Source of the DNA: Trogon surrucura
Lineage: Eukaryota; Chordata; Aves; Trogoniformes; Trogonidae
Assembly (NCBI GenBank): GCA_020746105.1
Contig: CM036627.1
Location: 1,488,001 to 1,552,000 of the forward strand
Direction of reading: 5' to 3'
Length of the DNA: 64,000 nt
Shown here: positions 21,601-27,600 of the stretch, piece after piece
How the letters are laid out: every line of letters begins with the position of its first letter
How positions within the stretch are numbered: the stretch's first letter is position 1
Program-made: the position numbers and the translations under genes
The notes under the pieces: model-generated
Database searches by the model: none
What the model was told of the DNA's origin: nothing
What the model saw: only the letters and a program-made list of their open reading frames with translations

Positions 21601-24600
21601 TCCCAGAGGGACACCTGGAGGCATGTTGTGCACCTGCAGTTCCCTCCTCATCCTTAATTTTTGTAATTTACTTCATCCACAAAGCCGCAAAAAGAAAAAC
21701 GATTATTGACTGATTTTGAGCATGAAGAGGGAAACAAAAACTGTAGAAGCAGATGTACAAACAACCACATCAGATGTATGCTTTCCCAGAGACTGAAGAG
21801 AACAGGAATTCATCTGATGAGGCAAAATGCAAAACAACTCTCCTCTTTACCTCAATCCTTATTGAAAAGCGGGAATCAGGTGCTGCAATCTCAGTCACAC
21901 AACTGTCCCTGGAGAAGGCTCTCCTGCCCCTCTCAATGCCCCTCAAGCCCTTATTTCTAATGTGATCAATAACAGCAGCAGCTGACGGGTTTGTACTACC
22001 TGACACTGATCAAACATCTCAGGAAAATCTGCATCTGACATATCAGAAATGCCTGTAAGAAAATCTGCTCTCAAGAGAAAATTAAGACGGACAGTTGTTT
22101 CCAAATTAGGACAAGTTCTCAGACAGAAACACAGCTACACCAGCAGTCTGTCTACGAACCAGCACTGCACTGGCACCAAACTCCTGATCTAGCAAAGCAC
22201 ATAAATTCTGCACAATTACTCACATGCCCTGAAGCGCTTTAAGAGACCAGGTCTTCATCAGATGAACGGGAGAACGACAAGCTAAACCTGAGACCACTGC
22301 TTATTTTCAGATCTCTCTACCCACCCAGACTACCAACAAGAAGCGTAATTTGCATCAACGCGGACTAAAAGCACATAAATGCAGGCTCAATGCTCAGAGG
22401 CAGTGTTTAAAGTTTTCCCCAAAGTGCTTCCTCAAACCAAAACGTTACTGCTCTTTAAAAAGAACGATCCCCAATTCCATCGCTTCCGCACGAAGTTATC
22501 TACCTGCTGGTGCCCCTGCCATTACTGTTAAAGCTGCCACTGACTTGGTACCGATATAGTGACTTTTGACAAGGAAACGAGCCAATTCCAGGACTGTATC
22601 GAAAGGCTGGCTCAGCACTTTCTGGGCCCATTCGCAAACGAGCCGGCAGGCCGCAGAGACGACTTCCTCATCCGCGCTTTGCAGCTGCCCAGACAGCTCT
22701 GCCCCATCCAACTAGAACAAACAAACAAAGGAAGAAAGGTTACTTGAATTATTAAGGGTCATTAAGGCACAAAAACAAAAACAGAGAGAGCAAATTACGA
22801 TCAGACACCCAACAAAAAATTGAGTAAATGTCGATCGCAGTGAAAATCGATCACAGTTTTTCACAAAGTCGGGAGAATAAGATCCCCACTCCAGTATCAT
22901 TTAAAAACGAAGTGTCTTAACATTAATCTACTGCTTATTTCCTGCATGTGGAGCCTTGTCAACTCGGCAGCCACTGCTACCCAGGAACTGCTGGTGTCAC
23001 TGGGTTTCCTCTTCCTTAGCATTGACTTGGAAAAAAACCCCAAAAAACAACAAAACCAAAACAGAATCAGAGTTCAAAAGATATAGCTTGTGGGTGGCAA
23101 CACTGAAAAAGTCTGCTTCACCTCCTAAATTAGTTTCTTTAGTAGTACTCCAATTATTCTTAGCTTTACAAAAAAGTCAAAAAATAATTCCGAATATAAG
23201 TACCGTAAAGAAAACTCTTTAAAACTACGTAGCACTTTGTTTTGAAAACTTCAGACAGAAAACCAACAGAATGCTAATTTTTGCAGAAGTATATACAAGT
23301 ACATATCATACCCCATCTCCAGTTTTATGAAAGTCAAGGTTGGGCAGTGTTGGCATATGCACAAAAGCCTTCTTCCTCAGTCCACTGTAGCAATATGTGA
23401 ACAAGAATTAAGGTCTAAAGCGTCTCTGGTTGTTAGCTGGGGGACAGGAGGCAAGGGCAGCAATTCCTCCGATACCCCTTTATGAGCAAACCCAACGACA
23501 GATCTAAGAACGACTGTCGTTATCGTCCTCTCTCAGCCAGGCAGACTCAAGTGCCTAGAAGTGGCTGTGTCACTCACTGGGCTCTTCTGTCCCTGCAGAG
23601 GAGAACATGATGCTGGCCATGACGAATTTCACTTGACTTAGAAGAACCACTAAACCAGGCCAAGCAGTTTCAATGAGCTACCCTATATTTAAATCATTAA
23701 CATAAATTTGTATTAAACCCTCTTCCCAAATCAGGCCTAAAACGAGATGGGGAACACATTTCCCAAAGTTAATCACCACAAAAACCCCCATGTTCTCAAA
23801 TTTAGGTCTTACTTTATTATGAGTTGTTCTTTTTTGCCTATTTTTGCTAAACTTCCTGACATTTCCTTCTCTGAAGTGACTTCCACAAACTGAAGTTCCC
23901 CATGACAAGATAAAGTGACGAGGACCTTTCTTCAGATTTCACACAATTTTTGTGTGGCTCTCTCCCTACCCACAGGTAATTCCTCTGTAAAAATATGGAC
24001 CCAAATACCCAGATTTGTTCTTATACTGATCTCATCAATCAGTACAAAAAAAATACACTCCTCCCTCCACTACTCTTACTCACTTGTTTATAGGTCTAAA
24101 AATCAAATCAGCCTTTTTTCCTCTCCACAGCATTATTCTGGGAGTTCACATGAAGTGTCTCTTCTCTGTGATACAAAAATCCTTTTCAGGATCACTAATA
24201 TTTCAAATTCTGTACGTATGTCTGCATTTCTCCTTCCTAGACCACGGAGTCTGCATTTGCTTGCACTAACCTGGATGGAGCATAATTACAGTAAAATAAA
24301 TGTAAATAGGCTAGGTGTTAAGGTAAGTGTAAGAAAAGGTCGTGTTTTAATCATTCTGAATTAGAAACTTAGGGAATAGAACTGAAAGAGATCCCCTGGG
24401 TAAAGCTACAATTACATCATATGATTTCTGCCTTAAAATTTCTCTAGCTCTAACCAGAACATCACTGCTAGGTTTTGGACTCCACTGCCAGATAATCCAA
24501 CACTATTTTATGAAACAATTTAACCAATGCAAAACTTCTCCATTTACTACTACATGGAAGGGTTTTTTTCCCCCTCTATGGAAGACAAATAACTCTAGGC

Positions 24601-27600
24601 TGCTCACTAGCATTTAATTCTCTCTAAGTGCAGGCTTCAAGTGAGACCACGGCAAAAGTCAGCACTGGAGTGCACCCGTGTCATTACTGCTCGTTGTTTT
24701 GAGTGGTTTTTAATTAAAGTCTACAAGCACTTTGATGTCTTTTGGCCTTTTAATGCTCCCCCTCCCCTGCTTAGTGCAGTGGCTTTAGTCTACCCAGCAC
24801 ATCCGAACGGAGCAGGAGCAGCCCCGGGGCGTGCAGCAGGTATTACATTCCTTCATGGCAGTCCGTAAGGATACCCAAGGGAAAACGTAATTCTCAACTT
24901 GGAAAAGACAAAATTCTCACTGATGAAAAAAATACTTTGAAAATTCCTGCCAGTTTTTGTTTTTTAATGGAAGACCTGAGCATGCTAAAGACTAGAAAAA
25001 CTGCAGCTCGGTCTCAGAAAAAGCCGAGAAAAATGCACGTCCTTGTAGCCTTTATTGTTGATGACTGCATTTCTCTCCTAGCAGAACTTCCTGAGCCTGG
25101 ACTGAAGCACCAGAACCACCGCTGGCATGAGCAGACCCTTTTGCATAGGATTTGCCCTGAATTCTTCACAGTGGCTGCCTATTAACTGATAAACTAACCT
25201 GTTCCAAGATCTGTGTATAGCTCTGCCTGTAACAATTACACCTGGAGGCACTATGACTACACCAGTTTTTTAAATACTTAAAGGTTTGTGCTGAGTTACA
25301 ATTAAACAGGGTAGTGTCTTTGGACACCCTCTGGGAGGGACTACTTCCCTAACACAGGGAGAGGGGAGGGAAGGAGATGGATTCCAGCTTTGGGCACAGG
25401 AAACAAAATTCTGCAGTTAAGAGAAAGACGTCGCTCCCTATCCTAAAAGCTCTTGCTCTGAGTTGTGCTTCCTATCTGAGGAACCAGACAGGAACCAGCA
25501 GATAGGAACCAGATAGGAACCAGATAGGAACCAGCAGGACCAGGCTTGGATCGTGCCTTCCAAGTCTGAAATCAGCTTTTGTGATGACTTCCCAGCTCCC
25601 TCTTCTCTTTCAAGCAATACTAAAGGTTGAGGAGAGGCAGGTTTTTAAAATACCTGTAGCTCAGCTTAAGAAGGATCTTTGACTTTACAGCTAACTTCCA
25701 TATTACTGGTGTGTGCAAGTATAATCCAAACCCAAGAAATGTTCTGATAATTCTGCGCTGCACTACCAATAAAACATTAGCTAATGCACATATACAAGTT
25801 CCTTTATTCCAGTATCTCCTTTTGCACTAAATGATAAAGCTTCTTTGATTCCTCGCTGCTGTGACAACTGAGCGTCAGAACCTAAATTTAAGCGCTTGTA
25901 TCTTGCAACCTAACACTACCGCAATAAATAATTTTTCAAGAACGCTGGGAAAGTGTCTGCATTTTTCTTTTAACATTACTTCTACATTTAGCTGGTAGTT
26001 AAGCCATAATGACAGATGTTCTCCAAGCAAGTGCAGAAAAAAGTTACTGAGAAGCGTTCTAGTAAAGGATATTTTGATTTGCCTCTTGTGCCTAGACGAC
26101 GGGCCTTCATGTTTGGAAAGACATTTTTCATGATCTTTCCAAAGTCAGCAGCACTTAATGGGTGGTAGCCAAGATTGTCACAATAGCTCCTGCAACAAAG
26201 AGAAAGAAAGCATGAGTGGAACCAAAGTTAAGACAAGAGGCCAGCCTGCATGCTCAACTCCATCAAAGGTTTTCCAAAGAAAACACTTACACCCATCCAT
26301 ATTTAGAACCACATTTAACATTAATGAAGCTATCCACAACGAATTGAATGCATTAAAAATGTATAAACAGAGCTATTAATATCATAGTTTTTGCCTTGTT
26401 CTCTACTGAGTTCAAAAACAAGTCATCTGGAGACATAACAAGTAGTGGCATTATCTAGAGCACAGTTAAGATTTACTCCACGACTTAGTTTGAAGCGTAT
26501 GTTTCGATTCACTTATTTTAGGACAGACTAAACGCAGAGACGTTGTTCTAGCCAGAAGAACAGCTGGAATGTGGTAAAGCCTGAGGTCCTGCAGGAATAT
26601 TTGAAAAGCAGTAGGCAAGAGCTTCGGCAGCGTCCAGAGAAGATTCTGCCTATGCAACCTCAACTTAATAGAGCTCTGCAGAACAGAATTTAATCAAACG
26701 TACCTTCCCAGGGAACCAGCTTCACCTTTATAGGTGTAACATAAACCTACACAGAGGACCTAGCCCTCTTATCCTGGTATCGCTACTGAACTACGAGAGC
26801 CGCTTAATTATAGATGTCCTTATAGTCATTAACAGTCCTAAATTAACAGACTTCAACTGCCTCTGAAAATAAGGCTCTTTGCATGACTGAGTATAGAACC
26901 TGATGATACAGGGGAATGAAGCAACGAAAGGCAATTATTTTGCTAAGTTTATTATTCCTGTAAAACGGGCCCCGTTATCCATCTTCAGTTCTCAAAAACA
27001 GTAGAAAGAATTTTACTTCAGCATCTATTCAGATGTTTCAACATCTAAGGTATTTTAAAAATAATCTCCTTGAGGCACAGAACAAGAATCATCGATATTG
27101 CTGCAAAATGTGAACGTTCCGGAAAACCACAAACACGTGAAAGCAGAGAGGAAAACTGGGAACTGCTCTGGAAGGTTTGCTTCTACATAGCAAGTGCTTA
27201 AGGCTGCACAAAGACGGGAATGCCAGATCGTCTTTGTTCAAGAGCCTTGTGGTATTTCACAGATGTTGGAGTGCTAAGGCCCAAACCACACCGTTAAAGC
27301 ATTCTCATGCAGATCTCCTGCAGTGACAGAGGCAGTGCCAGACAGCAATGACCTCCTTTCCCATGAGAAGTCCTACCAGCAACACACAGTAACAACCTCC
27401 CTCAGAAAAGGTGTCTGCACACGACCCTCTGTGGGCATCACCAGTAACTTCACACACCCTGTTGCCTGCTACTCCAACCAGGTACATGCAAACAAATCTC
27501 AGCTCATAAAGGGAAAAAGAAAGAAAAAACAGCGCTCCTGAAACAGATGTTTATTCCCAGCACCACCTAGTAAAAACTGGAACAATTACCAGCAGCATTT

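What the first reader, a model, noticed from the sequence alone, without database searches (positions are those of the whole stretch)
23397..26072. U12-type AT-AC intron splits the RFX DNA-binding domain of RFX7
The sequence shows a perfect ATATCCTTT donor, an AC end and a CCTTAA branch-site core 11 nt upstream of that end. The junction restores S-K-Y-C inside the conserved [13 protein letters not shown] with no frame error. U12 introns are a small fraction of vertebrate introns and are often spliced slowly, so production of a DNA-binding RFX7 would depend on the minor spliceosome. Retention would run in frame past KSKY into intron sequence and cut off the last part of the winged helix, the PxLPxL motif and everything C-terminal. 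I do not know whether this intron is already catalogued.
Basis: partly seen in the sequence, partly recalled or inferred. Interest (0 to 1): 0.7.

Follow-up and report, generated by a model that had tools for sequence, protein, structure and literature searches.

The report
AT-AC minor intron in RFX7 and RFX5
In a bird-like genome, the gene for the transcription factor RFX7 is cut inside its DNA-binding domain by a rare intron type that the minor spliceosome is expected to remove; its sister gene RFX5 has the same intron at the same base, while RFX4, RFX6 and RFX8 have an ordinary intron there.

Summary
On the minus strand, 26072..23397 (2,676 nt) is an AT-AC intron: donor ATATCCTTT (9/9), a CCTTAA branch core with its A 11 nt before the last base, phase 2, restoring GKSKYCYSG. 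None of the five register-equivalent splice pairs is GT-AG; the least damaging in-frame GT/GC-AG pair near the borders replaces CYSGLRK. The six other RFX7 introns that I could read are GT-AG. New here: RFX5 of the same genome has a 150-nt AT-AC intron at the same base of the same codon, with the same donor, GACCTTAA and 11-nt spacing. RFX4, RFX6 and RFX8 have GT-AG introns at that base; three RFX1-3 loci have one 12 nt upstream; ARID2 has none there. So it is a U12-type intron shared by RFX5 and RFX7, at a probably old position whose class differs between subfamilies. By kind it is ordinary. No held main text holds RFX7 or RFX5 together with U12 or 'minor intron'. Catalogue tables and RNA could not be checked.

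The parts
23397..26072 (-). U12-type AT-AC intron of RFX7, 2,676 nt, phase 2
26064..26072 (-). 5' splice site ATATCCTTT (9/9); the only RTATCCTTT in the window
23407..23413 (-). branch-site core CCTTAAT; putative branch A at 23408
23397..23398 (-). 3' terminal AC
26073..26189 (-). upstream exon: RFX domain up to GKS plus two bases of the K codon; AG acceptor before it
23312..23396 (-). downstream exon: last base of the K codon, [28 protein letters not shown] (end of RFX domain and PTLPNL); GT donor after it
25988..25990 (-). first in-frame stop (TAA) if the intron is retained; begins at intron base 83
33028..33150 (-). RFX7 exon with the start of the RFX domain ([28 protein letters not shown]); AG acceptor, GTGAGT donor
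   Evidence: 3' end set by the TACAA|GTGAGT border; one search printed it one base early
22504..22711 (-). next RFX7 exon ([11 protein letters not shown]...); AG acceptor, GTAGAT donor
34730..34812 (-). RFX7 exon [21 protein letters not shown]...; AG acceptor, GTACGT donor
42886..42919 (-). small RFX7 exon ...[13 protein letters not shown] acceptor, GTAAGT donor
19646..19941 (-). RFX7 exon [14 protein letters not shown]...PSPIP; AG acceptor, GTAACG donor
   Evidence: end read by eye from the printed sequence
15389..18694 (-). last RFX7 coding exon, [11 protein letters not shown]...VEMLG and stop; AG acceptor

Best explanation
This is a U12-type (minor) AT-AC intron in the RFX DNA-binding domain of RFX7, inherited from the common ancestor of RFX5 and RFX7. 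U11/U12 should recognise the donor ATATCCTTT and the CCTTAA branch site, and the minor spliceosome should remove the intron; this step is inferred from sequence, as no RNA was available. Splicing joins AA|A and so completes [10 protein letters not shown] and the PTLPNL stretch. Retention reads into a stop that begins at intron base 83 (shown by sequence), predicting nonsense-mediated decay or a protein without the end of the winged helix (inferred). The same base carries a GT-AG intron in RFX4, RFX6 and RFX8, best read as one old intron that changed class in one lineage, most likely U12 to U2 (inferred). The confidence below is for the intron class and its sharing by RFX5 and RFX7; the class-change part I put at about 0.65.
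For: Donor 9/9, AC end, CCTTAAT with A 11 nt from the end, phase 2. No GT-AG pair gives the same mRNA, and the best of 10 in-frame GT/GC-AG pairs near the borders replaces CYSGLRK. RFX5 (178.3 bits to the RFX5 chain 8zjr_M) repeats donor, GACCTTAA, AC, phase and 11-nt spacing at the same base. Seven genome places match a donor pattern with GKSK-like codons before it (reversed control: 2), and only RFX7 and RFX5 have RRLG upstream. RFX5 and RFX7 fall together with support 100 in an unrooted domain tree. The genome holds one U12 snRNA match over the cut-off, 146.9 bits. The joined RFX7 domain scores 104.9 bits to PF02257. The position is shared by RFX4, 5, 6, 7 and 8, five of the nine RFX-domain genes found.
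Against: The branch site is 7/9, not perfect. The 9-mer itself is about as common as its reversed control. In RFX7 9 of the last 11 bases are pyrimidines, so a pyrimidine-poor 3' end is not shown. No transcript evidence. U11, U4atac and U6atac searches did not complete. Four of nine RFX-domain genes lack the position: three RFX1-3 loci have an intron 12 nt upstream and ARID2 reads through, so a single origin needs losses or shifts. RFX4/6/8 have only weak support (54) and the tree is unrooted. Direction of class change is not shown, and one U2-to-U12 change is reported in flies (PMC2831892 abstract).
Confidence: 0.96

Rival explanations
1. The exons are joined by the major spliceosome through a GT-AG (or GC-AG) pair.
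For: GT and AG dinucleotides exist near both ends, and one in-frame pair (GTAACT at 26047, AG at 23372) swaps only seven residues. It could serve as a cryptic route when minor splicing fails.
Against: None of the five pairs that give the conserved mRNA is GT-AG. All 10 in-frame, stop-free GT/GC-AG pairs found (donors from the exon to 300 nt into the intron, acceptors from 200 nt before to 70 nt after the exon start) lose or replace at least CYSGLRK. Pairs further away were not listed.
Confidence: 0.02
2. It is one of the rare AT-AC introns spliced by the major (U2) spliceosome.
For: Such introns exist (PMC2831892 and PMC8280824, passages seen).
Against: Those in sodium channel genes all have G at +5 (PMC2831892). 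Here +5 is C and the donor is 9/9 U12, with CCTTAA and A at 11 nt.
Confidence: 0.02
3. The shared position in RFX5/7 (AT-AC) and RFX4/6/8 (GT-AG) is parallel insertion at the same site, not one intron that changed class.
For: RFX1-3 carry a different intron only 12 nt away, so this stretch may attract introns. RFX1-3 and ARID2 lack the position.
Against: Same base and phase in five of nine RFX-domain genes, both subfamilies in full. Two introns per subfamily in about 230 bases of domain would coincide by chance a few per cent of the time (rough estimate, uniform sites).
Confidence: 0.3

Closest known systems
U12-type AT-AC (A-type) minor introns
   Same: ATATCCTTT donor, AC end, CCTTAA core with A at 11 nt, non-zero phase, one minor intron among GT-AG introns.
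   Different: Nothing by kind. The host genes RFX7 and RFX5 do not occur together with 'minor intron' or 'U12' in the held main texts.
U12/U2 class-converted introns (Burge et al., as described in PMC2831892)
   Same: A U12 and a U2 GT-AG intron at the same codon position and phase.
   Different: Seen here between paralogues of one genome and with the AT-AC subtype. In that paper 5 of 79 single-subtype converted clusters were AT-AC.
prospero/PROX1 AT-AC intron
   Same: AT-AC U12 intron in a transcription factor gene, listed in a table of PMC2831892.
   Different: In the fly it is a twintron; a nested pair was not looked for here. Different gene family.

Membership tests
U12-type (minor) intron | 5' splice site RTATCCTTT | tested here: met
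   9/9, (consensus recalled)
U12-type (minor) intron | branch site TTCCTTRAY close to the 3' end | tested here: met
   GACCTTAAT, 7/9 with the CCTTAAY core intact, A 11 nt from the end (consensus recalled)
U12-type (minor) intron | AT-AC or GT-AG termini | tested here: met
   AT-AC, the only one of five equivalent pairs with both a U12 donor and AC
U12-type (minor) intron | no polypyrimidine tract needed | tested here: inconclusive
   9 of the last 11 bases are pyrimidines in RFX7, 6 of 11 in RFX5
U12-type (minor) intron | minor spliceosome encoded in the genome | tested here: inconclusive
   one U12 snRNA match; U11, U4atac and U6atac searches not answered
U12-type (minor) intron | splicing depends on U11/U12/U4atac/U6atac | not testable with these tools
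   no RNA data
U2-type AT-AC intron | G at +5 of the donor | tested here: not met
   C at +5
RFX family, RFX7 | RFX DNA-binding domain | tested here: met
   PF02257, 104.9 bits against a cut-off of 27
RFX family, RFX7 | RFX7 rather than RFX5 | tested here: met
   three recalled RFX7 peptides match at 86, 89 and 95%; 122.8 bits to the RFX5 chain 8zjr_M against 178.3 for the separate RFX5 locus. No annotated RFX7 sequence was available

The most novel reading that the evidence does not exclude
One ancient intron in the winged helix of RFX factors has split in fate: it stayed an AT-AC minor intron in RFX5 and RFX7 and became a major intron in RFX4, RFX6 and RFX8. The RFX5/RFX7 pair would therefore be jointly sensitive to A-type minor splicing (CENATAC, U4atac), which would tie MHC class II control and RFX7 target genes to the minor spliceosome.
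Probability: 0.5. Interest if true: 0.55.

Novelty: new member of a known kind. Interest (0 to 1): 0.4.

Why it matters
A transcription factor whose DNA-binding domain can only be completed by the minor spliceosome is a plain, testable dependency. Finding the same intron in RFX5 gives a second readout: RFX5 is recalled as a gene of MHC class II deficiency, and a patient with an RFX5 frameshift is in the cohort of PMC6369708 (passages). AT-AC introns belong to the subtype most affected by CENATAC loss: 92% of A-type introns responded by retention or cryptic splicing, and the subtype has high basal retention (PMC8280824, passages). The paralogue set also offers a compact case of one position in two intron classes.

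Tried and rejected
Rejected: a GT-AG or GC-AG junction and a U2-type AT-AC intron (+5 C). Looked for homology between the RFX5 and RFX7 introns beyond the signals: at blastn E up to 1 only a 13-nt match in opposite orientation, E 0.56. Looked for the exon-donor stretch in viral and prokaryote contigs in case of eukaryote contamination: 13 + 93 stretches matched, none of the 106 with RRLG-like residues upstream. Rfam found no family at gathering score in the window. In one search two RFX1-3 rows had the intron end one base short and so read GT-AA; corrected. In one search the RFX7 exon at 33150 was ended one base early; 33028 is used here. The tree has seven rows: one of the three RFX1-3 loci was dropped because its domain is identical to another in the part used, and ARID2 was left out. 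ARID2 was checked afterwards: its exon reads through the matching region.

Literature: 10 searches, all used. RFX7 with minor intron, U12-type, U12 and minor spliceosome: 0 papers each. RFXDC2 with U12: 0. RFX5 with U12 and with minor intron: 0 each. One search listed 25 of 243 papers; none of those 25 holds RFX7. One search (RFX7, RFX6, exon, intron, splice sites; at least four) listed 20 of 23; only PMC2533330 was opened. RFX5 with RNU4ATAC: 9 papers; I saw the listing of all nine and passages of PMC6369708 only, where both genes stand in a gene panel table. Passages only were seen of PMC6717393, PMC7367187, PMC2533330, PMC6865273, PMC10639083, PMC8280824 and PMC2831892, plus section 15 of the last. 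The searches cover open-licence main texts; supplementary tables, where intron lists sit, could not be opened.
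Full report
What was claimed.

The observation. Reading the minus strand, the upstream exon ends GGC AAA TCA AA and the intron begins ATATCCTTTACTAG; it ends GACCTTAATTCTTGTTCAC and the next exon begins A TAT TGC TAC AGT GGA. A script joined the exons and obtained [67 protein letters not shown] without a stop; the intron is 2,676 nt, phase 2. The joined domain matches PF02257 with 104.9 bits; its best solved chains are RFX5 (8zjr_M, 122.8 bits) and RFX1 (1dp7_P, 57.6 bits). 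Because ATAT occurs at both borders, five splice pairs give the same mRNA: AT-AC, TA-CA, AT-AT, TC-TA, CC-AT. None is GT-AG, and only the first has a U12 donor. I then listed in-frame, stop-free GT/GC-AG pairs with donors up to 300 nt into the intron and acceptors from 200 nt before to 70 nt after the exon start: 10 pairs, of which the least damaging replaces CYSGLRK by PLLERFS.

Chance. The 9-mer alone proves little: one RTATCCTTT in the window against 0.95 expected, and 16,477 ATATCCTTT in the 1.166-Gb genome against 15,903 for the reversed control. What is unlikely is the combination: the 9-mer at the exact exon end, in phase, with AC at the other end and CCTTAA with its A 11 nt before the last base. 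The branch site as a whole is only 7/9 to TTCCTTRAY. The consensus strings used for scoring are recalled.

The gene. tblastn with three recalled RFX7 peptides places RFX7 on the minus strand, best matches 86, 89 and 95% identical. I read borders for eight coding exons from 42919 down to 15389. Of the seven introns between them, six are GT-AG and one, this one, is AT-AC. The first coding exon was not located.

RFX5 in the same genome. The window lies in a genome of 1.166 Gb; bird-like is my judgement from its size and CR1-like fragments, not from a named record. PF02257 finds 11 matches there, which I assign to nine genes: RFX7, RFX5, three RFX1-3 loci, RFX4, RFX6, RFX8 and ARID2. RFX5 rests on a search (178.3 bits to the RFX5 chain 8zjr_M, against 53.7 to RFX1); the other names rest on resemblance that is partly recalled. 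At the RFX5 locus (L013, contig C32) the exon reads ...IKARRLGGRGQSKYPF, that is CAG TCG AA|ATATCCTTTC, and 150 nt later ...GGACCTTAACGCCACCAAAC|G TAC TGC TAC AGC resumes YCYSGIRRKT. Donor, GACCTTAA, AC end, phase, codon and 11-nt spacing are the same as in RFX7. Apart from these signals blastn finds no likeness of the two introns. Of seven places in the genome that match the donor with GKSK-like codons before it, only these two have RRLG upstream.

Other paralogues. RFX4 (AA|GTAAGC ... TCAG|G TAC), RFX6 (AA|GTAAGG ... ACAG|G TAT) and RFX8 (AG|GTACTG ... CTAG|G TAT; the codon is Arg there) have GT-AG introns at the same base of the same codon. The three RFX1-3 loci have a GT-AG intron four codons upstream (with two rows corrected), and ARID2 reads through. 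So five of nine RFX-domain genes share the position, two as AT-AC and three as GT-AG. A small unrooted tree of the domain joins RFX5 and RFX7 with support 100, and RFX4/6/8 with 54 only. The simplest reading is one old intron position with U12 class in RFX5/7 and U2 class in RFX4/6/8. U12 to U2 is the direction usually assumed, although PMC2831892 reports one U2-to-U12 case in flies (abstract); AT-AC introns are under-represented among converted ones, 5 of 79 clusters (section 15). Parallel insertion is not excluded.

Mechanism. Inferred: U11/U12 binds donor and branch site, and the minor spliceosome completes the K codon and the rest of the winged helix. Shown by sequence: retention reads [28 protein letters not shown] and stops at 25990-25988, upstream of at least three later junctions, so decay or a truncated protein is expected. 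In RFX5 the retained frame stops at the TAA inside the branch site. The genome has one U12 snRNA match over the cut-off. AT-AC introns belong to the subtype that needs CENATAC most (PMC8280824, passages). None of this was tested on RNA.

Novelty. By kind this is an ordinary minor intron. No held main text holds RFX7 or RFX5 together with 'minor intron' or 'U12', but genome-wide tables (IAOD includes Gallus gallus) would be expected to list such a clear case and I could not open them. I therefore rate it a new member of a known kind, perhaps already catalogued without comment.

Noticed in passing
L024 and L025 (reverse strand), first 50 nt of the introns that follow the RFX domain exon: Two RFX1-3 paralogues share 84% identity over the first 50 intronic bases after a weak GTTTG donor; a second alike stretch (73.5% over 102 columns) lies upstream of the exon, in L010/L011, and was not classed as exon or intron. 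Perhaps a splicing control element.
   Followed up: partly
L013, branch site of the RFX5 intron: In a retained RFX5 intron (150 nt, a multiple of three) the only in-frame stop is the TAA of the branch site itself.
   Followed up: partly
window 26047 and 23372 (minus strand): A cryptic in-frame GT-AG pair would swap CYSGLRK for PLLERFS and could appear when minor splicing fails.
   Followed up: no
window 16867-16927 (minus strand): Run of Thr-Pro dipeptides (HTPTPTPT...) in the last RFX7 exon, with imperfect 6-, 18- and 24-base repeats beneath it.
   Followed up: no
window 1500-3000: GC-rich island (up to 83% GC per 500 bases) with long open frames on both strands; the one minus-strand frame tested has no Pfam match; perhaps the promoter of a neighbouring gene.
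   Followed up: partly
RFX7 domain: The RFX7 domain also passes the Pfam cut-off for Pox_D5 (PF03288, 26.7 against 21.4 bits); the RFX5 domain stays just below it (20.3).
   Followed up: no
window 27668-28499, 33468-34226, 3504-3980: Frames that resemble CR1 LINE fragments (recalled resemblance; no Pfam match for the one of three tested).
   Followed up: no
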